From Whitmania pigra (Eukaryota; Annelida; Clitellata; Hirudinida; Haemopidae): DNA of 64,000 bases. The notes under the pieces are model-generated. The model did not search any database. It was not told the DNA's origin and was given only the letters and a program-made list of their open reading frames with translations. The DNA lies in the NCBI GenBank assembly GCA_021613335.1, contig JAJTWR010000236.1:1256001-1320000 (forward strand), written 5' to 3'. Each line of letters opens with the position of its first letter. Within the stretch, counting starts at the first letter, position 1. Both the position numbers and the translations under genes were made by a program. Shown here piece after piece: positions 15,901 to 60,878 of the stretch.

Positions 15901-16699
15901 AGGAAAGTTGATAAACTGTGTTCATTAGAAAAAAGACTGAAGCCAAACTTTGATTGTTTAGGATTGAATGTTCACCGTTGATGGTTTAATGATCGTAAAA
16001 ATACATACCTAGATTATATTGTTTTGCATTTTGTATTGCTGTATTGATGTGAATTCCCTTTTGAACAAAGTTTTTATGATGACATAGTAATTGCGGCGTG
16101 GGTCGATGATTGTTCAAACATTGAATTTAGAACTGGCTAAAATGCACGTTGAAAGTTTGACTCCTGGGGTTCCATCTACTTGGCTTAAATTCTGGGCAGT
16201 TTATAATTTTTCAGCATGTGGTTGGGTAGTAGTTGTTTTTGGGAGAAAGTTACTAAATGGTCAGTGGGTATATTGAGGTACGTTGAAATTCGAGACTATG
16301 GACCGGGCATAGCTACCAGCTCAATCAGCATTTCCATGATATTCAGCGATGCCGAGTAAAAACGGTAAAGTGGCGTGGACATCTGAGGCATCCCTATTTC
16401 GCAAATCTAGTTTTACGCCAGTGTCCTCAGCAGGAAGACCTAGTAAAACTAGAAAGTTGTGACCAGCTATCAGCTGGGTCAACGCCCCTCTACTGGAAGT
16501 ATGAGTTGGTACTGATGGTTGTACTCTAGTTTATATTTTATTAGCAGCAAGAAGTAGAATTGAATAATTATTTAAATTTAGATTCAGAGTATTTATCTAA
16601 TATATTTTTAAATTTAAAAAGAAATTATTGAATTTACTTTCTATGCAAATCTGCAATAGTGGGCGATAGTTCTTGTTTACAAAAGTACAGTTAGAGAAC
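15901..16699. other. Intergenic region between the SAP/RRM gene and ELP5
   Basis: Holds the 3' UTR of the SAP/RRM gene and the ELP5 promoter. The stretch 16285-16510 is less AT-rich than its surroundings and carries the inverted motif GACCAGCTatcAGCTGGGTC, which could form a small hairpin. I see no gene in it. Confidence 0.4.
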
Positions 16700-17524
16700 A
16701 TGGACATCATCGGTGGAAAGGAAATCAGCAGTACAACTTTGATTGTGGATAATGAATCAGTATTTGGTGATCCCGTGCTGAAGTGTTACATTCGGAAGTT
16801 GTTGAATGCACTTGATCAAAATGTTCACATTTATTTGTATAGACACGATTCCACCGAATTATTAGAAAAACTGGATATTAATCCTAGTTCTAAATTGAAG
16901 ATACATGATTTTTCTAGAGATATTTTCGGTTGGGAAACGGAGGCTAATAAATTTGAATTCCCTGTAGTCTCGGAAAACACAACCGTTTTCATTGATGACC
17001 TGAGCAAACTCATCGATTTAACTGATTGCAACAAAGTTTGTAGGTTGTTAAACAGATGCAACAATGAACTTAAGATGTCAAAAATTGTTTCCCTAGTCCG
17101 TGGTAATCTGCACGACCCGTCGACACTCAGATCTCTCGAACACAGCTGCCGAACATGGATAACTCTTGAAGCTAGTGAATCGCCTCAAGTTTATGCCCGC
17201 GCTGTGACCATATGGAAGAAACCGAAGTTTTCAACAAAGAAATCTGAAGAATGCATCACCATTACCAACGAATTCGAGATAAAATTTGAAAAGATCATGC
17301 CTATTGCTAAAGAACCTCAACAGAAAATCGAAGACCCGCTGAATAACCTTACGTTCAATGTTGCTTTGAAGTCGAGTGAAGTTGAAGCAAGAAATAATCT
17401 GGTTCTTCCTTATCTGGCTGCCAGAGAGGTGAAAGCCAACAAAGCGCCAGCGAAAATCGAATATGTTCCAGATGAATTTGACGACCTAGATGATGAAGAT
17501 CCAGATGACGATTTAGATATTTAG
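16700..17524 (+). CDS. ELP5: Elongator complex subunit 5, ELP5 (single exon)
   Basis: One uninterrupted frame of 275 codons gives 274 residues. I take the ATG at 16700 (MDIIGGKEISSTTLIVD); the frame is open nine codons further upstream but with no earlier ATG. The strongest family mark is the C-terminal acidic tail YVPDEFDDLDDEDPDDDLDI, nearly the same as the end of vertebrate ELP5. The body has the RecA-like fold pattern expected of the Elp4-5-6 ring, including VFIDDLSKLI and SKIVSLVRGNLHD. Elp456 is a hexameric ring that binds tRNA and supports Elongator in making the cm5U-type wobble modifications. An AATAAA at 17536-17541 follows the stop by only 11 bases, so the 3' UTR may be very short. 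The gene has no intron, unlike all its neighbours. Confidence 0.9.
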   Translation: MDIIGGKEISSTTLIVDNESVFGDPVLKCYIRKLLNALDQNVHIYLYRHDSTELLEKLDINPSSKLKIHDFSRDIFGWETEANKFEFPVVSENTTVFIDDLSKLIDLTDCNKVCRLLNRCNNELKMSKIVSLVRGNLHDPSTLRSLEHSCRTWITLEASESPQVYARAVTIWKKPKFSTKKSEECITITNEFEIKFEKIMPIAKEPQQKIEDPLNNLTFNVALKSSEVEARNNLVLPYLAAREVKANKAPAKIEYVPDEFDDLDDEDPDDDLDI

Positions 17525-25528: not shown

Positions 25529-25897
25529 GTTAAACACTTCGAGAGAAGGCTCAGCCACCTTTCAATATAATTTGACTGCTTAAAAATCCATCTAGGGCAT
25601 TTATTGCTTATGTCCGATGGATAATTCATTCGGTCGATTCCTTGTTCACTTTGCAATGATAAAGATTCTTCTCGTTTAGTTCAATGTTGTGATGACACGG
25701 TTTATTTTATATCTGTGATAAAAACATGTGATTTCTGCCCGTTTCATTTTATTTCATCATAATGTCAGTTAAATCAAGATCGGTAATCAATTTAAATACG
25801 ATATTTTGGTCAGAAATATAGTCTTTTATTATAATATCCGCTTTTATTCGCTCCAAACTAAAATTAAACAATTTGAAATCAGAGTCGTTTGGGGTCT
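25529..25897. other. Convergent intergenic region between the MEAK7-like gene and the MIP precursor
   Basis: Two genes end toward each other here, 370 bases apart. On the minus strand an AATAAA (complement of 25843-25848) lies about 50 bases after the MIP stop codon. A second AATAAA overlaps the MIP stop itself (GGAATAAAG). Confidence 0.5.
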
Positions 25898-26503
25898 TTA
25901 TTCCTTTTCAGCAGCGCCATCTGTGCCAGCATACGATCTCTTTCCCCACATACCCATGCTTCCGCTCGCCCACTTGCTCTTTTGAGATCTTATCTGATTA
26001 ATGGCACTGTCCAACCTCTTACCCCACATACCCAAGCCATCGGGACCCCATCTTCTTTTCTCAGAGTAGATCGTATCATTATCATTTTCATCGTAGTAGT
26101 CGTAATAGTCGCGGTCTCCGACTGGCGCCGTCGCTATGGGTAACGATCTCTTCCGGCCCCACATGGCCATGTTTCTGGAGTCCCACTTTCTTTTTTGCCA
26201 GTCGGCGAGTGATCTCTTACCCCACATGCCCATTTTTCCGGATGTCCACTTCCTTTTCTCCGCTTCCGGAATGGCAGGCTCGTCGTCGTTCATTTGGAAT
26301 CGTTTCCCCCAGAGACCCATCTTGTCAGAGCCCCACTTTCGTTTATTCTGGTGAGAATCCGTGTTTTCGGCTTTAGGGTGAGATTCTTCAAAGCTGACAG
26401 ATTCTGCATATTCGGCGTCCTTTGACGCGACAACGTGGGAGATCAACAGGACCGAAGAACTCAACAACAGGAATACGGCCACTGGGTTTACATGCGAAGC
26501 CAT
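25898..26503 (-). CDS. MIP: Myoinhibitory peptide (MIP / allatostatin-B) W-amide neuropeptide precursor
   Basis: Single exon, 201 residues. Residues 1-26 form a signal peptide with a leucine/valine core. Five repeats end in W-G followed by a basic site, the pattern of C-terminal amidation: KWGSDKMGLW (56-65), KWTSGKMGMW (85-94), KWDSRNMAMW (106-115), RWGPDGLGMW (151-160) and KWASGSMGMW (177-186). Each is W(X7)W-amide. Four are preceded by KR; the fifth is not, so it may be cut at a single Lys or stay N-terminally extended. Spacers are acidic; the one at 120-148 is Tyr/Asp-rich (DRDYYDYYDENDND) and could be sulphated. MIPs act on the sex-peptide/MIP-type GPCR; in annelids they have been linked to larval settlement and feeding. 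The stop codon overlaps an AATAAA hexamer. Confidence 0.93.
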   Translation of the reverse strand: MASHVNPVAVFLLLSSSVLLISHVVASKDAEYAESVSFEESHPKAENTDSHQNKRKWGSDKMGLWGKRFQMNDDEPAIPEAEKRKWTSGKMGMWGKRSLADWQKRKWDSRNMAMWGRKRSLPIATAPVGDRDYYDYYDENDNDTIYSEKRRWGPDGLGMWGKRLDSAINQIRSQKSKWASGSMGMWGKRSYAGTDGAAEKE

Positions 26504-29500
26504 AAGGTTGATCCCTGCGAATGATTTAACTTATAATGAATTTTAAACATCGGGATGAATTTATCAAGAGTAAAACTGTCCCTTTTGGCAAGGGCTTGAA
26601 GCCCTGTTATCAATAAAGAATTCTTTATGCTCGGACACTTTTTACGATTTGAGTCGTTCCCCTGCCAGGGCTCGTATAACTTAATCCCCCAAGACTTACG
26701 CCCACACTTAATTTGCATGCACTAAAAGCCAACCGAAGGTGATAATTAATTTGAAACCGTTGCACTTAACTGATTACATTTAATTTTTGGAGGTCACTGC
26801 GATTCATGGAACGTACCAGCCCGTGCAGATATTATGATACTTTTAAGCTGAAGTTACTACTAAATAACTACTTGCGTCGACTTATTCGATTTAAATACAA
26901 AAATACAAATTCTACAACAATTATTTAAATATATCCTATATCCATAATTTGAGCGAATATTGCGCTTCAAAATCTGTTTGATTTGAAATTCTAGATAAAG
27001 GTATTTTGAGGTCAAACGGACTAACCCTTGCACTGAAATCTTTAGAGGAAAATATCGAGAAACGCAAAAGCAAGTACAAATAGACTTTTTTTTGGAGATA
27101 TAGCTAAATTTATTTTTATATTATCATAATTAGGGAGACACTCATTAACGCCTGACAGTTATAGTCAAAGATATTAAACAGCGGGTCTACTCTTTTAATA
27201 GAAGCAAAACTTCATTGGCAACTCCACACTCCATTGCCATTTATATACTTTCCTCGAGCGTGGGATCCGCGTCATAATCTCTCTATGGCACGTTATGATG
27301 AGCCGAATTCCTAAAAATCAGCTTGATAATTAGAAAGTAAATTAAAATGAACAAATTGAATTTCTAGACGATTAAAAAATAAACGCCTTCACCAAAAATC
27401 ATTCTCTTTCTCAAATCGACATGGCCATTAAGAACTTATCGAGTTGCTCCTTCTGCTATTTTTTTTGAATAAGGTTAATGTGAAGAAGTTGAATGTATTC
27501 TGGAACACGCCTGCTGTCGGTGAGAAGCCATTAAGCAATAGTGAGTTTATTAGGTAAAAACTTCTTGCCGTGCCAGACGGGACTCTACTAAGTGAATGAA
27601 ACATCAAACCATGAGACATGCTTGACAACCTTTATTGATAGCCTTTGCCTTAAGGTGGCGTCAGAATGGTGTTAAAAATCCTCCTTATCATCCACATAAA
27701 AGAAAAGATTTAATTTATTATGAAGGAGCATGTCTTCTTTTGTTAGGGACCCTAGTTGGATTATCCAATTATACAACTAATCATAATTTGGGCAAATGTC
27801 CTAATCTAATATTCGGACGACACATCCTGTTATTTACGGCGATATCAGATTACCTCAAATCACGCGGCCCTATATTTATATTATTTGATTAACTAATTTG
27901 CGTCATCTCATGATAAATTTACTGACCACACAGATTTCCAGTACCCTCCAAAATTCAGTTCCTGAAAAAACACAGACTCGACTCACAATTCTCAAAAAGT
28001 ACTGAATTTCTGTCACTGAGTAAGTTCGAGACATTCCCTCTTGCCTAGTAAGATTAAATCTGGCAAATGTCTACTGGTAATCTAACAAATTAGAAATTGC
28101 AGCGAAATTGAATAAAAAAAAGCTTAATCAAAGCAGCCAATTCAAACTAATGTAGTGAGGTTCGAGATCGACGATTTATCTCTAACTCGAAAAAAGTAGG
28201 ATTTTTGTGAACAGAAAATGTAAATTAGACGTCAAGAAATAACTTTTACTTTTCCCATAGCAACAGACGAAGAACGACAGAATATCAGAGCAGACGACCC
28301 CGTCACGATTGTCTGTTTACCAAAAACATTGCATGGAGTGAAGATAACAGTTAACATTGTATGCTGAAGAATTCGGAAAACAATTGAAGTACTCTCTACA
28401 TCTAAGCAAATATTTATAGGCATGAATAGCCGCTAACAAATTACCCGACGAAGTTTACGGAAATTATTTTCCGACCGATTTATATTAAAAATGAATTTTT
28501 GAAAGCTTCGAATAAATTATTATTGGAATTTTTATAAATTAATTAATACCCCATAACTATGACAGATGCTTTGTGGAGACTAATGACGGACAAATCCTTG
28601 AAAAACATTGATTTCATCTACGGAGTTCTCGAGGTGAACGAGCGACTACAGACATATTTGTTTACCTGTTTCAAAGAGCAAATCAATCACTGCGGAGCCC
28701 ATGGGAGGAACATTTAGAGACAAAAATACAAAAGCTAAATATTCGCCAATAATAAATAGTATTGATATTTCATTTCTCTATGCAAACAGCACTAGAATAA
28801 AACGTTTAATAGGATATAAAACGTGGGCGCTTTTGAAAGGAACGTCATTTGGGGGCAGGAGGGCATACGGTTGAAGAGATGGTATGGATTTTCGTCATTT
28901 TGAGTGTCTCCCCTTGGACAAAGCTGGAATGAAGACTCTGGATTTTGACACAACTCATTTCTTGTGACGGAATCACTTCTGCTGGTGTCATTCAGTTGCT
29001 CACGTATTTAATAATTCCCTTTTCTAATGCAAAAAGCAGTCCCAACAACCGAAATTGATGTGTGGCGTGGCGCTTGCCTAGAATTGCCGCTCTAATCCAC
29101 AATGTGTTCGGATTTTCAACTTAGTTTGAGAAATTCAGGCCATTCTGTTAATGACTGAATTATCTCAGTAAGATAGAAAGAGGCTTTAGCTAAATGCGAT
29201 GCTTTCTGCTTGTAATCTTTTCATATGTAGTTTTAGTTTAGTTCTATATGTTTTAGTTTCGTTTGGAACTTAAAAAGCAACTTAATAGCAACTTAAAAAT
29301 TTAAATAAAATCCTTAAGCCCGAGATTAGAGTCACCGAATAAATCTTAGTCGAGGACACAAATTCTTCAATTTGTCTAAACTTTAACGAGTTGCTTGAAA
29401 CTTCTATTTAACTTTCTCCATCTTAACATCGTAACATTTTACATCTTTCCGAATTATGCCATAGCATTACCTTTTCTTTGCAATCATTATTATTGTTATT

Positions 29501-50917: not shown

Positions 50918-53027
50918 TTAAAGCTTGGCCTTGAGATAGTCTACCATATCCCCAAAGATCCTTTTGGAAACATTGTAGTGCTCAGTCCAAATTAAGACAC
51001 CATGAAAGGCTCCTTGATAGTGCATCATCTTCGTCTCGACTCCTTGTCTCTTCAAACGTTCACCGTACATGAGGCCGTCGTCCCTCAGGACGTCAAATTC
51101 TGCTGTAATGAGATAGGTGTCTGGCAGGCCAGACAAATCGCTGGCCAAGAGAGGGGCATATAATGGATCCGTGAGGACACCTTTTAGTCTTTCAATATCT
51201 TTCTCAGATTCTTTTGAAAGTTCTGGTGATGATGATGAAGCAGGGTCAGCTGTGGTGGTAGATGATGAATTTATTCCAAGGGATTTCCAGTCAACAAGGG
51301 GAGCAAGTTTTCCATCTGGATCAATGACCTTTTGGTGCCTACAAAAATAAAAAATAACTTAAGAATGAACACGAGTACTTATGTATATTTTCGCACCTTC
51401 CTTCAATGAAATCATCCGATAGAAGGTGTCCTTTGCTACCAAAGGCATACCACAACCAGAAGTTGGTCATGCTGGACCTGGAGAGAACCTCATCAAGATA
51501 GTTCTGGTTATAGGAAGGTGTGTCAAAGCGGTAGGCTTGGAGACACGGAACGGCGAGTATTTGAAGCTTATTCTTCCAGATGAGGTTCGAGTCCCTGATC
51601 TTTATGGAAAGTGCAGCTGCTAGGTTACCTCCGGCACTCATTCCTGTTTACAAGGGGCAGACAAATTATCAATTTAACATACTATTACATATACAACTTA
51701 TTATTATTCATACAGCATACTATTATACCATAAAACATACGTTCTATTATAAGTATAACATACTGTTGTACATATTATTTTATGTTATCACCGTTTTAGT
51801 TTTTAATGTTTATCATCACCTCCTACAGCAATTCTGAATGGGTCGACATTGTGCTCTAAGGCATTCTCGATGAAATGTTTTGTGGCAGTAAAACAATCAT
51901 CCAGAGGAGTGGGGTACGGAAATTCCGGAGCCATTCTGTATCTTGATTCATTAAGTATTAAGTATTATGTAGCAAGTGCTAACTCATTGTGCACAATCTA
52001 GAACACTTTTGCAGGTTTGGAAAATTATTGAAATAATTAAAAAAATGAAAACAATATAATTAATTTTATCAGAATTTAAAAATTATTGGTTAATATATTT
52101 TGCAGAACAACAACATCGAATAAAAAATGGCCACTCTGAGAGATGCGTAAGTTGCCAAACTTGCAAAGGAATTCGAATAGACTTTTGAGAAGCAACTTAC
52201 TCAATGGACACGATCATCATCTTCATGGCCTTACACAATTCTTCTAAAAACTCTGAATCCATTTCTGAAAAGAAAAATGTTCAGTTATAGAACCAACATT
52301 TCAGATCATGTCAGGTCTTTTTCATAAACTCAAGATGTCTATTCTGAACCTTCAACCAACCTGCTGAACCTATGACCCATCCACCACCATGGATCCATAT
52401 AAGGGCAGGTCCGTTAGAATCTTTTTCTTTAGGTTCAATGATCAAAACATCAACTCCAGCAAACGAATCCTTATATTTCTGCATCAATCAGAAGTTATGC
52501 TGATAGGTTAATGACATAGATCAAAAAAAGACTAATTTAACCATTCTATTTAACTTGAGCCAATATACTTTATGAACAAAAAATTTTCAATAATGCAATT
52601 AGAATGTAAATGACATGTTACAAATGTCTGTTACTAACCCTGATGTCATCATAAATAGGCTTTTTTGATTCCGAAAACCCAATGCTCGCCAACTTTCTCA
52701 AAAGAATTACCTTATGTCCCAAGCCAACCTTCTCTCCCAATTCTGCCTATTGACAACATTAGCAAAATTGGTCGTCATCTCCACCAAAACAGAAATGTTA
52801 GACATACAACCTCATTTTAAAATTAAACTCGATTATATATTAAAAATAAAATTTGAGACAAAATTAAGGATACTAACCAGAAAAATTCCTATTTTCGAGG
52901 CACCATAGATCCAGGCAACCTCACTCTTCTGCTCCAAACCTTCCGGGATATTGAAATTTATCGTCCACCAATAAGCCAAGCCAGCGACAATCAAACTGAG
53001 TATAACTGCCTTGGAAACGAAAGACAT
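50918..53027 (-). CDS. NCEH1/AADAC-like microsomal esterase, tandem copy 1 (7 exons)
   Basis: Exons on the minus strand: 53027-52878, 52746-52639, 52478-52361, 52264-52201, 51941-51820, 51643-51397, 51338-50918; 1230 nt, 409 residues (human NCEH1 408). I use the ATG at 53027 (MSFVSKAVILSLIVAGLAYWW), which starts a type II signal anchor; the open frame before it has no ATG. Hormone-sensitive-lipase family marks: oxyanion motif HGGGW (116-120), nucleophile elbow GMSAGG with Ser190, acid Asp352 in EFDVLRDDG and His382 in GAFHG. The usual elbow is GDSAGG; Met replaces Asp. Family members hydrolyse cholesteryl, acylglycerol or drug/xenobiotic esters on the lumenal side of the ER. Its 3' flank has lost about 190 bp found in copies 2 and 3, including an AATAAA. 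Confidence 0.93.
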
Positions 53028-53837
53028 TGCGAGAAATATGAAAAGGAGTAGAAACTTCAAAACTGGATACGACTTCTCCGTACTATTTATTAACTGCAGA
53101 CATTATATGCATATGCAGAACTACCCTCCCCTCAACGGGTCTACATCTCCCTCTGCATGACCTGTCAAGGTGTGATTTGTAATATATATTAATATGTTTG
53201 TAGTAATTCATTTCAATTAGAATATTATTATCACTAAAATAGAGCTAGTTTTTCCGGCATTTACATATTTATATTTGAGCGCCAGGTTAGAATTTTTTAA
53301 ACCGTGTCATCTGTGATTGATATGTTCGCTGTCATTATTATAGCCTGCTTAACGTAAAGTCGGAATTGTAAATTATTCAAATACTTTTTCGAGAAAATAA
53401 AACAACGTAGAATGAATCCACTGTCTCAATATTCAAGCTCAATATTATGATGATTTGAAATGAATAATTAAAGCAAATCATGGTAACACATATTCAAACA
53501 AAAATTAGGGTGTCACTGGCAACAAATTAAAAATATCAAATGTGTATAAAATAATTTCACAAAAAAAAAGGCAAAAGATGAGTTGGGAACATCTTGCCAA
53601 GGCAGTCATTAAAAACATTTAATATCCATTTGAGCTTTTGCTTTATTTACATCCTTGTCAGCAACCAATAAAAATACCCCAAATTAGTTCGGAAAAGACA
53701 AAAAAGCCACATGGCCATGCGGGCATGTCAAACATTTCCGCCATATTTTGATGAAAACCATAGAAAACCATCAAGATGGAACTCAAGCGGGTAACAAGAC
53801 AGCAGATAACGGCACTCGATTCATGCTTGAGGCACCC
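53028..53837. promoter_or_regulatory. Copy 1 promoter and copy 2 3' flank
   Basis: The minus strand just upstream of copy 1 has the conserved block TGCATATGCATATAATGTC (near 53110-53092) and TTAATAAATAGTAC (near 53091-53078), also present before copy 3. The 3' flank of copy 2 carries AATAAA (complement of 53642-53647) about 190 bases after its stop. Confidence 0.55.
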
Positions 53838-55979
53838 TTAAAGCTTGGCCTTGAGATAGTCTACCATATCCCCAAAGATCCTTTTGGAAACATTGTAGTG
53901 CTCAGTCCAAATTAAGACACCATGAAAGGCTCCTTGATAGTGCATCATCTTCGTCTCGACTCCTTGTCTCTTCAAACGTTCACCGTACATGAGGCCGTCG
54001 TCCCTCAGGACGTCAAATTCTGCTGTAATGAGATAGGTGTCTGGCAGGCCAGACAAATTGCTGGCCAAGAGAGGGGCATACAATGGATCCGTGAGGACAC
54101 CTTTTAGTCTTTCAATATCTTTCTCAGATTCTTTTGAAAGTTCTGGTGATGATGATGAAGCAGGGTTAGCTGTGGTGGTAGATGATGAATTTATTCCAAG
54201 GGATTTCCAGTCAACAAGAGGAGCAAGTTTTCCATCTGGATCAATGACTTTTTGGTGCCTACAAAAATAAAAAATAACTTAAGTGTGAACACGAGTATGC
54301 ATGTATATTTTCGCACCTTCCTTCAATGAAATCATCCGATAGAAGGTGTCCTTTGCTACCAAAGGCATACCACAACCAGAAGTTGGTCATGGTGGACCTG
54401 GAAAGAACCTCATTGAGATAGTTCTGGTTATAGGAAGGTGTGTCAAAGCGGTAAGCTTGGAGACACGGAACGGCGAGTATTTGAAGCTTATTCTTCCAGG
54501 TGAGGTTAGAGTCCCTGATCTTTATGGAAAGTGCAGCTGCGAGGTTACCTCCGGCACTCATTCCTGGTTGCAAGTGGCAGAAAAATTATCAATTTAACGT
54601 ATTACATATACAACTTACTGTTATTCAAACAGCTTACTATTACACCATAAAACATATGTTCTATTATAAGTATAACATACTGTTGTTTTTAATGTTTATC
54701 ATCACCTGCTACAGCAATTCTGAATGGATCGACGTTGTGCTCTAAGGCATTCTCGATGAAATGTTTTGTGGCAGCAAAACAGTCATCCAGAGGAGTGGGG
54801 TATGGAAATTCCGGAGCCATTCTGTACCTTGATTCATTAAGTATTAAATATTATGTAATAAGTCCTAACTCATTGTGCCTTTGAGATAAGAAATTTGAAT
54901 TGCTGACACTAACAATACTTGGTAACTATTGCAGTCAGTGGCACATCTAGAACACTTCGGCAAGTTTGGAAAATTATTGAAATAATTAAAAAAAATAAAA
55001 ATAATTTGATTAATTTTTTCAGAATTTAAAAATTATTGGTTAATATATTTTGCAGAACAACAACATCGAGTAAAAAATGGCCACTTATGCAGAGATGCAT
55101 AAGATGCCAAACTTGCAAAGGAATTCGAATAGACTTTCGAGAAGCAACTTACTCAACGGACACGATCATCATCTTCATGGCCTTAGACAATTCTTCTAGA
55201 AACTCTGAATCCTTTTCTGAAAAGAAAAATGTTCAGTTACAGAACCAGCATTTCAGATCATGTCAGGTCTTTTTCATAAACTCGAGATGTCTATTCTGAA
55301 CCTTCAACCAACCTGCTGAACCTATGACCCATCCACCACCATGGATCCATATAAGGGCAGGTCCGTTAGAATCTTTTTCTTTAGGTTCAATGATCAAAAC
55401 ATCAACTCCAGCAAACGAATCCTTATATTTCTGCATCAATCAGAAGTTATGCTGATAGGTTGATGACATAGATCTAAAAAAGACTAATTTAATCATTCTA
55501 TTTAACTTGAGCCAATATACTTTATGAACAAAAAATTTACAATAATGCAATTAGAATGTAAATGACATGTTACAAATGTCTGTTACTAACCCTGATGTCA
55601 TCATAAATAGGCTTTTTTGATTCAGAAAACTGAATGCTAGCCAACTTTCTCAAAAGAATTACCTTATGTCCCAAGCCAACCTTCTCTCCCAATTCTGCCT
55701 ATTGACAACATTAGCAAAAGTGGTCGTCATCTCCACCAAAACAGAAATGTTAGACATAAAACCTCATTTTAAAATTAAACTCGATTATATATTAAAAATA
55801 AAATTTGAGACAAAATTAAGGATACTAACCAGAAAAATTAATATTTTCGTGGAACGAAAGATCCAGGCAACTTCATTCTTCTGCTCCAAACCTTCCGGGA
55901 TATTGAAATTTATCGTCCACCAATAAGCCAAGCCAGCGACAATCAAACTGAGTATAACTGCCTTGGAAACGAAAGACAT
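53838..55979 (-). CDS. NCEH1/AADAC-like microsomal esterase, tandem copy 2 (7 exons)
   Basis: Exons on the minus strand: 55979-55830, 55698-55591, 55430-55313, 55216-55153, 54827-54706, 54563-54317, 54258-53838; 1230 nt, 409 residues. Exon lengths and phases equal those of copy 1, and no stop or frameshift is seen. HGGGW, GMSAGG, DVLRDDG and GAFHG are all kept. Differences from copy 1 cluster at the end of exon 1 (EVAWIFRSTKILIFL against EVAWIYGASKIGIFL), at the start of exon 4 (EKDSEF for EMDSEF) and just before the elbow (AVAGMSAGG for AVGGMSAGG). Its promoter lacks about 37 bp that copies 1 and 3 share, including the AATAAATA/TATAAT block, so it may be expressed differently. Confidence 0.93.
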
Positions 55980-56367
55980 TGCGAGAAATATGAAAAGGAG
56001 TAGAAACTTCAAAATTAGACCGACTGCTCCGCAGAACTACCCTCCCCTCAACAGGTCTACATATCATTCTTCATGACCTCTCAAGGTGTGATTTGTAATA
56101 TATATTAATATGTTTGTAGAAATGCATTTCAATTAGAATATTATTATTATCACTAAAATAGAGCTAGTTTTTTCGGCATTACCATATTGGTATTTGAGCG
56201 CCAGGCTAGAATGATGTTTTGAACCGTGTCATCCGTGATTGATTTGTTCGCTGTCATTATTAAAGCCTGCTTAACGTAAAGTCGGAATTGTAAATTATTC
56301 AAATACTTTGCGAGAATATAAAACATCGTAGAATGAATCTACTGTCTCAATATTCAAGCTCAATATT
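55980..56367. promoter_or_regulatory. Copy 2 promoter region with internal deletion
   Basis: Compared with the copy 1 and copy 3 promoters, the sequence jumps from CTGCTCC to GCAGAACTACC at about 56028-56033. The TATA-like and ATGCATATGCAT block between them is missing. The rest of the flank is shared. Confidence 0.6.
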
Positions 56368-56890
56368 AGATCATCCAATCAATTGAGATCTGAATTTTCC
56401 CGTACCACCTTCAAAAAATTCTCCATATGTTGCAAAGGTCCACTCTTGTTCTCCTCTCTGCCGTCGTCCCTTGTTTCTCTAAACAGTTCCTCACTATTTA
56501 AATCCCATCTTAAAAAACACATTCTATCCACCCGTTGAACCTGTTATCCACATTTCCACCTTATCATTCATTTTATTATCCTGGTTTTTTCCTCGTTGAT
56601 TACATCGCTTATTCATTATTCCGATTATTCATCGTCTCTCAGTTGTTGCCATTAATTTTCACCTGTCGTTACCATTAGAAATTTATATATATGCAAAGAC
56701 CCTTTCAAACGCCCCTTTAAATTTGTCAAATGAAACAACCTATCCCCTAGACGGGAATTAATTCCCTTGGGATAGTTCATTAATGAATTTGTGAATCTTT
56801 TTTTGGTGTGATTTTTTTTTGGCTATTTGAATATAGTTTTTTGAAAATAAACGAATTCAACCTGAAAAAAAAAAAAAAAAAAAAAAAAAA
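56368..56890 (+). mobile_element. 5'-truncated non-LTR retrotransposon with poly(A) tail
   Basis: An insertion of about 520 bp has a 28-base A run at its 3' end and an AATAAA at 56846-56851. It is flanked by AATATTA on the left (56362-56368) and right (56889-56895), a target-site duplication. From 56371 to the TGA at 56536-56538 it encodes KFSICCKGPLLFSSLPSSL and then LFKSHLKKHIL, the usual C-terminus of a LINE reverse transcriptase ORF. Matching flanks in copies 1 and 2 lack it, so it arrived after the esterase duplication. Confidence 0.88.
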
Positions 56891-57297
56891 TATTATGATG
56901 ATTTGAAAGGAATAATTAAAGCAAATCATGGTAACATATATTCAAACAAAAATTAGGGTGTCACTGGCAACAAATCAAAAATATCAAATATGTATAAAAT
57001 AATTTCACAAAGAAAAAAGCAAAATATGGTTCGGGAACATCTCGCCAAGGCAGTCATTAAAGACATTGAATATCCACTTGAGCTTTCGCTTTATTTGCAT
57101 CATTGTCAGCTATCAATAAAAATATCCCAAATTAGCTTGGAAGAAGCAAAAAAGCATCATGGCCATGCAGGCATGACAAACATTTCCGCCATAATTTAAT
57201 GAAAACCATAGAAAACGTTCAAGATGGAACTCAAGCGGGTAACAAGACAACAGATAACTGCAGGGCTGAATATCACTCGATTTATGCTTGAGGCACT

Positions 57298-59624
57298 CTA
57301 AAGCTTGGCCTTGAGATAGTCTACCATATCCCCAAAGATCCTTTTGGAAACATTGTAGTGCTCAGTCCAAATTAAGACATCATGAAAGGCTCCTTGATAG
57401 TGCATCATCTTTGTCTCGACTCCTTGTCTCTTCAAACGTTCACCGTACATGAGGCCGTCGTCCCTGAGGACATCAAATTCAGCCGTAATGAGATAGGTGG
57501 CTGGCAGGCCGGACAAATTGCTGGCCAAGAGAGGGGCATACAATGGATCCGTGAGAACACCTTTTAGTTTTTCAATATCTTTCTCAAATTCTTTTGAAAG
57601 TTCTGGTGATGATGATGAAGCAGGGTTAGCTGTGGTGGCAGATGATGAATTTATTCCAAGGGATTTCCAGTCAACAAGGGGAGCAAGTTTTCCATCTGGA
57701 TCAATGACCTTTTGGTGCCTACAAAAATAAAAAATAACTTAAGTATGAACACGAGTATGCATGTATATTTTCGCACCTTCCTTCAATGAAATCATCCGAC
57801 AGAAGGTGTCCTTTGCTACCAAAGGCATACCACAACCAGAAATTGGTCATGCTGGACCTGGAGAGAAACTCATCAAGATAGTTCTGGTTATAGGAAGGTG
57901 TGTCAAAGCGGTAGGCTTGGAGACACGGAACGACAAGTATTTGAAGCTTATTCTTCCAGGTGAGGTTCGAGTCCCTGATCTTCATGGAAAGTGCAGCTGC
58001 GAGGTTACCACCGGCACTCATTCCTGTTTACAAATGGCAGAAAATTTGGCGTGCAGGTTAGCCGAATGGGTTATGTGCCTGCATACGGCAGTAATGGCAA
58101 CGGTCGTAATGTGTCGTGTTCGAAACCCGGCCGGCACTGCCACAAGCGCCCTTGGGAAGGAGCGCTATATAAATGGTTACAAGAAGCGCCTCTGACGCTA
58201 TGCATATGGCGCTATATAAATGAAGTTACAATTACAATTATCGATTTTATATAACATACAAATTATTATTATTCATAGAGCACTCTATTACACCATAAAA
58301 CATATATTGTATTACAAGTATAACATACTGTTATACATATTATTTTAGGTTATCACTGTTTTAGTTTTAATGTTTATCATCACCTCCTACAGCAATTCTG
58401 AATGGGTCGACGTCATGCTCTAAGGCATTCTCGATGAAATGTTTTGTGGCAGCAAAACAGTCATCCAGAGGAGTGGGGTACGGAAATTCCGGAGCCATTC
58501 TGTACCTTGATTCATTAAGTATTAAATATTATGTAATAATTGTGCATTTGAGATGGGAAATTGGAATTGCTGACATCTGAATCCTTGGTAACTAGTGCAG
58601 TTTAGTGGCACATCTAGAACACTTTGGCAGGTTTGGAAAATTATTGAAATAATTAAAAAAGTTAAGATGTAAATAATTAATTTTTTAGAATTTTAAAATT
58701 ATTGGTTAATATATTTTTCAGAACAACAATATTGAGTAAAAAATGGCCACTTATGCAGAGATGCATAAGATGCCAAACTTGCAAAAGTATTTGAATAGAT
58801 TTTCGAGAAGCAAGTCAACTTACTCAATGGACACGATCATCATCTTCATGGCCTTAGACAATTCTTCTAAAAACTCTGAATCCATTTCTGAAAAGAAAAA
58901 TGTTCAGTTACAGAACCAGCCTTTCAGATCATGTCAGTTTTTCATAAACTCGAGATGTCTGTTCTGAACCTTCAACCAACCTGCTGACCCTATGGTCCAT
59001 CCACCACCATGGATCCATATAAGGGCAGGTCCGTAAGGATCTTTTTCTTTAGGTTCGATGATCAGAACATCAACTCCAGCAAACGAATCCTTATATTTCT
59101 GCATTAATCAGAAGTTATGCTGATAGGTTGATGACATAGATCTAAAAAAGGCTAATTTAATCATTCTATTTAACTTGAACCAATATACTTTATGAACAAA
59201 AAATTTATAAAAATATAATTAGAATGTAAATGACATGTTACAAATGTCTGTTGCTAACCCTGATGTCATCATAAATAGGCTTTTTTGATTCCAAAAACTG
59301 AATGTTTGATAACTTTCTCAAAAGAATTGCTTTATGTCCCAAGCCAACCTTCTCTCCCAATTCTGCCTATTGACCAAACAGAAATATTAGACATAAAACC
59401 TTATTTTAAATTTAAACTCGATTATATTATATATTAAAAATAAAATGTGAAAAAAAAACAACAAGGATGCTAACCAGAAAAATTCCTATTTTCGAGGCAC
59501 CATAGATCCAGGCAACCTCACTCTTCTGCTCCAAACCTTCCGGGATATTGAAATTTATCGTCCACCAACAAGCCAAGCCAGCGACAATCAAACTGAGTAT
59601 AACTGCCTTGGAAACGAAAGACAT
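57298..59624 (-). CDS. NCEH1/AADAC-like microsomal esterase, tandem copy 3 (7 exons)
   Basis: Exons on the minus strand: 59624-59475, 59366-59259, 59098-58981, 58887-58824, 58505-58384, 58023-57777, 57718-57298; 1230 nt, 409 residues, ending TAG where the others use TAA. Exon structure equals that of copies 1 and 2. HGGGW, GMSAGG and DVLRDDG are kept; next to the catalytic His, copy 3 has GAFHDV where the others have GAFHGV, and Pro-Ala-Thr-Tyr (LPATYLITAEFD) for LPDTYLITAEFD. The intron between exons 5 and 6 is longer because of a SINE at 58047-58235. It keeps the full TATA-like promoter block (about 59665-59714) and an AATAAA in its 3' flank (complement of 57090-57095). Confidence 0.92.
58047..58235 (+). 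mobile_element. tRNA-derived SINE (copy B), intact, in intron 5 of esterase copy 3
   Basis: Box A-like TAGCCGAATGG (58059-58069) and box B GTTCGAAAC (58118-58126) mark a tRNA-derived head. The tail reads GCGCCTCTGACGCTATGC and GGCGCTATATAAATG, then ACAATT units. AATT flanks both sides (58043-58046 and 58236-58239). The same intron position in copies 1 and 2 reads straight through without the insert, giving two natural empty sites and exact element limits of about 189 bp. Confidence 0.85.
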
Positions 59625-60414
59625 TGCGAGAAATATGAAAAGGAGTAGAAACTTCAAAACTGGACCGACTTCTCCGTACTATTTATTAACTGCAGACATT
59701 ATATGCATATGCAGAACTACCCTCCCCTCAACGGGTCTACATCTCCCTCTGCATGACCTCTAAAGGTGTGATTTGTAATGTATATTAATATGTTCGTAGA
59801 AATGCATTTCAATTAGAATATTATTATTATCACTAAAATAGAGCTGGCTTTTCCGGCACTAAGTTATTTATATTTGAGCGCCAGGTTAGAATGATGTTTT
59901 GAATCGTGTCGCATGTGATTGATTTGTTCGCTGTCATTATTACACCATTATTGTTATTGATAATGTTTTTGTCAACAAAATTACAACAAAAATTGCACTC
60001 ATCGATTATTTATTTTGACCTGAGCAATAAAGATAAGGTGTGCCTTAATGTTCATTAGCATAATTATTCTGAATGCAACGTAAATACGGGCACGTTAAAT
60101 TCGCAACAGGTTTTACAGGAGGCATTCTTGAGATGTTCTTCTCTTTCAAGGAGTTTTCATTTCTCTCCTTGTGGATATCACATGTGTTTGCACTGAGGAA
60201 TTCATTTGCAATTTAGATCATTCTCGAGAACATTGTAGAGCTGTTACATAGTTCACCACTGATCCTTGATTGTTGCTGGAGCCATTGAAGTTAGTTATCG
60301 GTTACTTACGTTTAATCAGCAATGTTTGTTGGTGTGGTATGGATTTATTTAACATCAGCTTGTGGGCATATGTTTTGCTGACATTTCGGAGCTGTTTGCA
60401 GCAACACGTTCGTG
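59625..60414. promoter_or_regulatory. Copy 3 promoter and flank
   Basis: The first ~330 bases are shared with the flanks of copies 1 and 2 and end near 59940, which marks the right edge of the duplicated unit. Beyond that lies single-copy AT-rich DNA with no gene seen. Confidence 0.55.
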
Positions 60415-60878
60415 TTTAACCAACGATGTGGCTTTCTCAGGTGATATTTAACAAAATAAGACGGATTTTTGTTTCCTTAATTCTGTTGACAGTCTTTTCC
60501 AACCATTCTATGGTTTAATAACAGTTGTTAACAAACGTTTTTTGAAATCATACGTTAAGTGTAGTTGATCAATTTGACAATTTGTGTTTTGTTTGCTACA
60601 CGCACTGCGGTTTTGGTATGCGTAATTTTTATGTGATGACTGATGGTTTAACCAACGATGTGGCTTTCTCAGGTGATAGTTAACAAAATAAGACGGATTT
60701 TTGTTTCCTTAATTCTGTTGACAGTCTTTTCCAACCATTCTATGGTTTAATAACAGTTGTTAACAAACGTTTTTTGAAATCATACGTTAAGTGTGGTTGA
60801 TCAATTTGACAATTTGTGTTTTGTTTGCTACACGCACTGCGGTTTTGGTATGCGTAATTTTTATGTGATGACTAAATC
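60415..60878. repeat. 232-bp perfect-length tandem duplication
   Basis: Unit 1 (60415-60646) and unit 2 (60647-60878) start TTTAACCAACGATGTGGCTT and differ at only a few positions (GATATTTAAC/GATAGTTAAC; GTGTAGTTG/GTGTGGTTG). No open frame of note. Confidence 0.95.

What the first reader, a model, noticed from the sequence alone, without database searches (positions are those of the whole stretch)
25898..26503. MIP/allatostatin-B precursor with five W(X7)W-amide peptides of the M-G-M-W type
Seen: signal peptide, five WG-basic repeats, all with exactly seven residues between the tryptophans; three end in MGMW and one each in MGLW and MAMW. Known: insect MIPs are usually W(X6)W, while many lophotrochozoan ones carry Met four residues before the last Trp. 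Inference: a divergent lophotrochozoan MIP set, useful for receptor work and lineage placement.
Basis: partly seen in the sequence, partly recalled or inferred. Interest (0 to 1): 0.75.

Follow-up and report, generated by a model that had tools for sequence, protein, structure and literature searches.

The report
Probable leech myoinhibitory peptide precursor
This is an intact gene, most likely from a leech, for a precursor protein that should be cut into five short nerve-signalling peptides of the well-known myoinhibitory (MIP) family; the family is known, and the same genome seems to hold at least two further genes of this kind.

Summary
The ORF is real, on the minus strand: 25898-26503, 201 aa, hydrophobic start, five W(X7)W-G-basic units. 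The finding's count of endings is wrong: they are MGLW, MGMW, MAMW, LGMW, MGMW, so two MGMW, not three. Two close homologues (89%, 77% identity) and a Helobdella robusta protein (profile E 3e-14) make it a MIP/allatostatin-B precursor, most likely of a leech. W(X7)W with Met three before the last Trp is ordinary for annelids (Platynereis MIP6, MIP7, MIP9), so the spacing is not divergent; what differs is G/A-M/L-W in place of R-V-W. Peptide 4 has X7 here but X5 in both close homologues; a six-base slip between GGCTTG and GGTATG would explain it. The genome holds at least two further W(X7)Wamide precursor families, on contigs C332 and C324, perhaps another on C136, and seven receptor loci most like the sex peptide/MIP receptor. 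Their membership rests on motif and layout; no expression data were available. New member of a known kind; the multi-gene set is the interesting part.

The parts
25898..26503 (-). ORF of the MIP/allatostatin-B-type precursor, 201 aa plus stop
   Evidence: homologues
26423..26503 (-). putative signal peptide, MASHVNPVAVFLLLSSSVLLISHVVAS (cleavage place estimated by eye)
   Evidence: sequence; no signal peptide program was run
26309..26338 (-). peptide 1, KWGSDKMGLW-amide, between KR and GKR; W(X7)W; predicted [M+H]+ 1206.609
26222..26251 (-). peptide 2, KWTSGKMGMW-amide, between KR and GKR; W(X7)W; predicted [M+H]+ 1210.586
26159..26188 (-). peptide 3, KWDSRNMAMW-amide, between KR and GRKR; W(X7)W; predicted [M+H]+ 1323.609
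   Evidence: a MAMWGRK unit recurs in Helobdella P0004
26024..26053 (-). peptide 4, RWGPDGLGMW-amide, between KR and GKR; W(X7)W here, W(X5)W in P0002 and P0003; predicted [M+H]+ 1173.562
25946..25978 (-). peptide 5, SKWASGSMGMW-amide, after RSQK (single Lys with Arg at -4) and before GKR; W(X7)W; predicted [M+H]+ 1226.545
   Evidence: Helobdella has RR at this place
26504..26521 (-). possible 3' splice site (TTCGCAG, then 11 bases to the ATG), suggesting an intron in the 5' UTR
   Evidence: sequence only
25897..25902 (-). AATAAA overlapping the stop codon, possible polyadenylation signal
   Evidence: sequence only

Best explanation
The ORF is a MIP/allatostatin-B (Wamide) neuropeptide precursor of a leech or near relative. 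After the signal peptide is removed, prohormone convertases cut at the KR, GKR and GRKR sites (and after RSQK before peptide 5). Carboxypeptidase trims the basic residues, and the amidating enzyme turns the exposed Gly into a C-terminal amide, giving five 10-11 residue W(X7)W-amides. These act, most likely on gut, muscle and central circuits, through MIP receptors of the sex-peptide-receptor type (the genome has a 476-aa one, L002) and perhaps through Wamide-gated sodium channels. Shown: the ORF, the repeated units, their conservation in relatives, a receptor gene of the right type. Inferred: processing, secretion, amidation, ligand-receptor pairing, physiological role, and the leech placement.
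For: Five units in one intact ORF, none elsewhere in the window, 0.04 expected. Homologues at 89% and 77% over 99-100% of the length and Helobdella HELRODRAFT_168750 at E 3e-14 with the same layout, including a MAMWGRK unit and the SKW.SG.M.MWGKR last unit. Units are more conserved than spacers (60 of 65 against 76 of 109 columns). Platynereis MIP6 AWGDNNMRVW-amide, MIP7 AWNKNSMRVW-amide and MIP9 GWNGNSMRVW-amide have the same W(X7)W with Met three before the last Trp (PMC4307165 passages). Receptor: L002 is 65% identical to a Helobdella protein and about 50% to mollusc proteins labelled sex peptide receptor, Aplysia among them, over about two thirds of its length. Copper monooxygenase family PF01082 has five matches at three loci.
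Against: No transcript, peptide or receptor assay was available. No Pfam family fits above its cut-off. None of the homologues bears the name MIP in its source, and six of the seven come from unnamed sources. PF01082 is shared by the amidating enzyme and dopamine beta-monooxygenase (recalled), so alone does not show an amidating enzyme. Peptide 5 lacks a dibasic site upstream, and peptide 4 varies in spacing between close relatives, which argues for weak constraint on that unit.
Confidence: 0.93

Rival explanations
1. The ORF belongs to another W-amide family (RGWamide/APGWamide, CCWamide or a cnidarian-type GLWamide) rather than to MIP.
For: Peptide 1 ends in GLW-amide, like cnidarian GLWamides, and the Wamide review treats GLWamides and MIPs as one superfamily (PMC7270403 sections 5 and 6).
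Against: All five peptides carry a second Trp at fixed distance and the profile's next best hits are W(X7)W precursors. RGWamide-type peptides are short and lack the second Trp (recalled).
Confidence: 0.03
2. The gene is one member of an expanded, partly decaying leech Wamide family and is itself no longer in use.
For: Other loci in this genome do look decayed: stops or frame changes in the C44 copy and in two C324 copies, a further C324 match is partial, and two units at C332 are degenerate.
Against: The window ORF is intact, single-copy at high identity, and its units are conserved in P0002, P0003 and Helobdella.
Confidence: 0.04
3. A sub-question, not an alternative to the main reading: peptide 4 was X5 in the common ancestor of these three sequences, and X7 in the window species is a recent six-base duplication.
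For: P0001 and P0002 are closer (90%) than P0003 is to either (83%, 85%), yet P0002 and P0003 share X5; the bases GGCTTG GGTATG look like a diverged duplicate.
Against: The unit at the matching place in Helobdella, EWASNYMGMW, is X7, so X7 may be ancestral and X5 lost once or twice by the same slip.
Confidence: 0.45

Closest known systems
Helobdella robusta hypothetical protein HELRODRAFT_168750 (P0004)
   Same: Hydrophobic start, four W(X7)W-G-basic units, MGMW (two), MAMW and MMMW endings, a MAMWGRK unit, last unit SKW.SG.M.MWGKR
   Different: About 37% identity; one extra degenerate unit KWIDAGSW (X5) without an amidation Gly; no counterpart of peptide 1 in the alignment
Platynereis dumerilii MIP/allatostatin-B precursor
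   Same: Several W(X7)W-amides with Met three before the last Trp (MIP6, MIP7, MIP9)
   Different: Four of the five peptides listed end RVW-amide; eleven mature peptides; MIP1 has X6 and MIP8 has Ala in place of Met
Insect MIP/allatostatin-B
   Same: Two Trp, C-terminal W-amide; receptor of the sex peptide receptor type
   Different: Spacing usually X6 (recalled; the Platynereis paper gives x6-7 for MIPs)
Platynereis WI/WL precursor
   Same: A second precursor related to MIP within one annelid
   Different: Its peptides are not amidated; the extra precursors at C332 and C324 here carry amidation Gly

Membership tests
MIP/allatostatin-B precursor | Signal peptide at the N-terminus | tested here: inconclusive
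   Clear hydrophobic N-terminus by eye; no prediction program was run
MIP/allatostatin-B precursor | Repeated W(X6-7)W units followed by amidation Gly and basic site | tested here: met
   Five of five units W(X7)W-G-basic
MIP/allatostatin-B precursor | Sequence homology to accepted or predicted annelid precursors | tested here: met
   Profile E 3e-14 to Helobdella, 1e-7 to 5e-7 to three others, 0.05 to a fourth; none of these five bears the name MIP in its source, so the link to named MIPs is by layout
[quoted passage not shown]
   The residue before the last Trp is Met in four and Leu in one of five; Met is not strictly small aliphatic, though it also occurs in P0004-P0007
MIP/allatostatin-B precursor | Mature amidated peptides present in tissue | not testable with these tools
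   needs mass spectrometry
MIP/allatostatin-B precursor | Peptides activate the MIP/sex peptide receptor | not testable with these tools
   a receptor gene most like that type is present in the genome

The most novel reading that the evidence does not exclude
Leeches have turned the single multi-copy annelid MIP gene into a multi-gene Wamide system: at least three precursor families with different C-terminal signatures (MGMW/MAMW in the window gene, MNVW/MHVW at C332, LKAW/LKIW/LRLW in the C324 cluster), perhaps a fourth (C136, ISAW), alongside about seven loci for MIP-type receptors, so that ligand and receptor subtypes may pair selectively.
Probability: 0.3. Interest if true: 0.55.

Novelty: new member of a known kind. 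Interest (0 to 1): 0.35.

Why it matters
The leech is a classic preparation for single-neuron physiology, and in the library searches I saw no paper listed on leech MIPs; Veenstra's 2011 prediction from Capitella and Helobdella is cited in papers I saw but was not read and may already list one. The gene gives five exact peptides and a candidate receptor for direct tests. If the further precursors are used, the leech offers a case where a peptide cocktail was split over several genes while the receptor family also grew.

Tried and rejected
Rfam gave nothing in the window; Pfam and PDB gave one sub-threshold match each to the precursor (E 0.074 and 1.2). COX1 was sought to place the species: four matches were listed, and by my reading of the translations they are bacterial-type oxidases; no search was run to confirm that, and no mitochondrial-type match was listed. 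The W(X7)W-GKR DNA pattern alone is at chance level genome-wide (18 matches, 18 in the reversed control); 9 of the 18 lie in the three precursor families and 1 in the C136 candidate; of the other 8, three lie in an open frame of 25 or more residues and none shows precursor features that I could see. Local BLAST of the C332 ORF against the precursors was run with composition correction and filtering off, which inflates its E-values; they are not used. Three weak matches of the C324 protein (C177, C11, C283, E 0.04 to 0.8) were not followed. The receptor tree leaves the branching of the seven receptors open (12 of 27 inner branches open, several long branches).

Full report
Observation. The ORF at 25898-26503 is on the minus strand and encodes 201 residues. 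It starts with a hydrophobic stretch and holds five units: KWGSDKMGLW-GKR, KWTSGKMGMW-GKR, KWDSRNMAMW-GRKR, RWGPDGLGMW-GKR, SKWASGSMGMW-GKR. All five have seven residues between the tryptophans. The finding counted three MGMW endings; there are two, and the fourth peptide ends LGMW. The motif occurs nowhere else in the six frames of the window, and 100 shuffles gave a mean of 0.04.

Homologues. A single-sequence search of 5.77 billion proteins gave two hits at E <= 0.001 among 82 candidates: P0002 (89%) and P0003 (77%). A profile of the three, at E <= 10 among 3001 candidates, gave these two and five more: P0004, a hypothetical protein of the leech Helobdella robusta (E 3e-14), three unnamed precursors (E 1e-7 to 5e-7) and P0008 (E 0.05). 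All five carry repeated W(X7)W-G units, from three (P0007) upward; P0005 also has one X5 unit with an amidation site, AWQSTYIW-GKR. Helobdella shares with the window gene a MAMW unit followed by GRK and the last unit SKW.SG.M.MWGKR. In the window species and its two close relatives the last unit is preceded by RSQK, in Helobdella by RR; a single Lys with Arg four residues before the cut is an accepted convertase context (recalled).

Conservation. Among P0001-P0003, 60 of 65 columns in the units are invariant against 76 of 109 spacer columns beyond residue 27 (p 0.0005; columns where the first sequence has a gap left out). The units are what selection keeps. The exception is unit 4: WGPDGLGMW here, WGPDGMW in P0002 and WGPEGMW in P0003. 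The DNA here reads GAT GGC TTG GGT ATG TGG, two similar six-base words in tandem, so gain or loss of two codons by slippage is easy. No DNA of the relatives was seen. Helobdella's matching unit is X7, which favours X7 as the old state, but the three-way identities (90, 83 and 85%) would then need two losses or another tree; I leave the direction open.

Placement. Helobdella is the nearest named precursor, and among named rows the receptor L002 is nearest to a Helobdella protein (65%; tree support 100/100 for L002, P0010 and Helobdella). The assembly of 178.2 Mb is of the size reported for medicinal leeches (passages). A leech, by its distance from Helobdella probably not a close kin of that genus, is the best reading; it is an inference, and the species is not shown.

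Known layout. Passages of PMC4307165 list Platynereis MIP1 AWNKNNIAW-amide (X6), MIP6 AWGDNNMRVW-amide, MIP7 AWNKNSMRVW-amide, MIP8 AWKGQSARVW-amide and MIP9 GWNGNSMRVW-amide (X7). PMC3890597 (passages) gives x-W-x6-7-W and reports a second, non-amidated WI precursor in Platynereis and Capitella. So X7 with Met is normal for annelids; the leech sequences differ by Gly or Ala and Met or Leu where these Platynereis peptides have Arg and Val.

Function. From PMC7270403 (sections 5 and 6 read): MIPs act through the sex peptide/MIP receptor in insects, a tick, a mollusc, a nematode and annelids, the C-terminal Trp being critical, and in Platynereis also through a peptide-gated channel. Passages of PMC11027379 report that Urechis MIP acts on SPR and lowers cAMP signalling in HEK293T cells. 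Passages of PMC9234716 report Wamide-gated channels in Capitella and Malacoceros. In this genome 53 matches to the receptor family PF10324 were found; loci were fetched for 30, and 20 ORFs from them were compared with seven reference receptors. Seven (L002, L003, L004, L006, L011, L012, L013; several seen only in part) have 41-65% identity to their best reference, the other 13 at most 35%. In the tree (30 rows) the four rows nearest outside form a group (100/98) apart from the seven and all references; the group holding the seven has 83/78 only, and L014 on a 40-kb contig looks like a second copy of L013. The references were drawn from hits to L002 and so lean towards it. L002 itself has an identical protein, P0009, in public data. 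A search for the channel family did not complete. PF01082 gave 5 matches at three loci; that family also holds dopamine beta-monooxygenase (recalled).

Further precursors. Searching the genome with P0005 gave, beside the window gene, a weak match on C332 (E 0.35). The ORF there (206 aa from its first Met) has a hydrophobic start, KR-AWGRNSMNVW-GKR, a C-terminal QWGRNNMHVW-G-stop, and two degenerate units; it is found once. P0006 gave two matches on C324 (E 0.004). One copy there (1807941-1808573) is an intact 211-aa ORF with KR-MWQKSSLKAW-GKR, SGWKKNRLKIW-GKR and SWQNNILRLW-G-stop, all X7, plus a unit RAW-GKK without the first Trp. A copy 10 kb away is 99% identical but changes frame near its end, two more on C324 are partial or interrupted, and a copy on C44 is interrupted. 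A single-unit candidate, RR-KWGDNAISAW-GKR after a hydrophobic start, lies on C136. Membership of these in the MIP family rests on layout and motif, not on strong E-values, and single pattern matches are at chance level (18 against 18 in the control). No expression data were seen.

Literature. Seven searches of the library were answered, six of them on neuropeptides; no listed title or abstract start deals with leech MIPs. One search listed 20 of 321 papers; some searches listed all they found (19, 14, 13, 5 and 8). Veenstra 2011 on Capitella and Helobdella was seen only in reference lists.

Noticed in passing
L037/L076 (G000 contig C332, 414684-415301, minus): Second W(X7)W-amide precursor in the same genome, with MNVW and MHVW endings and two degenerate units.
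   Followed up: partly
L068, L069, L071, L074, L075 (contig C324, about 1773426-1808573) and L070, L072, L073 (contig C44, 76421-77050): A third Wamide precursor family in a local cluster: one intact copy and several copies that are partial or interrupted by stops or frame changes.
   Followed up: partly
L056 (contig C136, 833438-833472, plus): Possible single-unit Wamide precursor, KWGDNAISAW-GKR behind a hydrophobic N-terminus.
   Followed up: no
L002, L003, L004, L006, L011, L012, L013: Seven receptor loci most like the sex peptide/MIP receptor in one genome, several seen only in part.
   Followed up: partly
L032-L035: The four COX1-family matches listed for the assembly read, by eye, as bacterial-type oxidases, so it seems to contain bacterial contigs.
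   Followed up: no
window 50918-59657, minus: Three similar stretches about 3 kb apart with pieces of an Abhydrolase_3 protein (three ORFs of the first and third stretch tested; the middle one seen only), apparently a tandem gene triplet.
   Followed up: no
window 60414-60873: A 232-base unit repeated twice in tandem at 99% match.
   Followed up: no
window 16673-17524, plus: A 283-aa ORF matching the Elongator subunit family Elong_Iki1.
   Followed up: no
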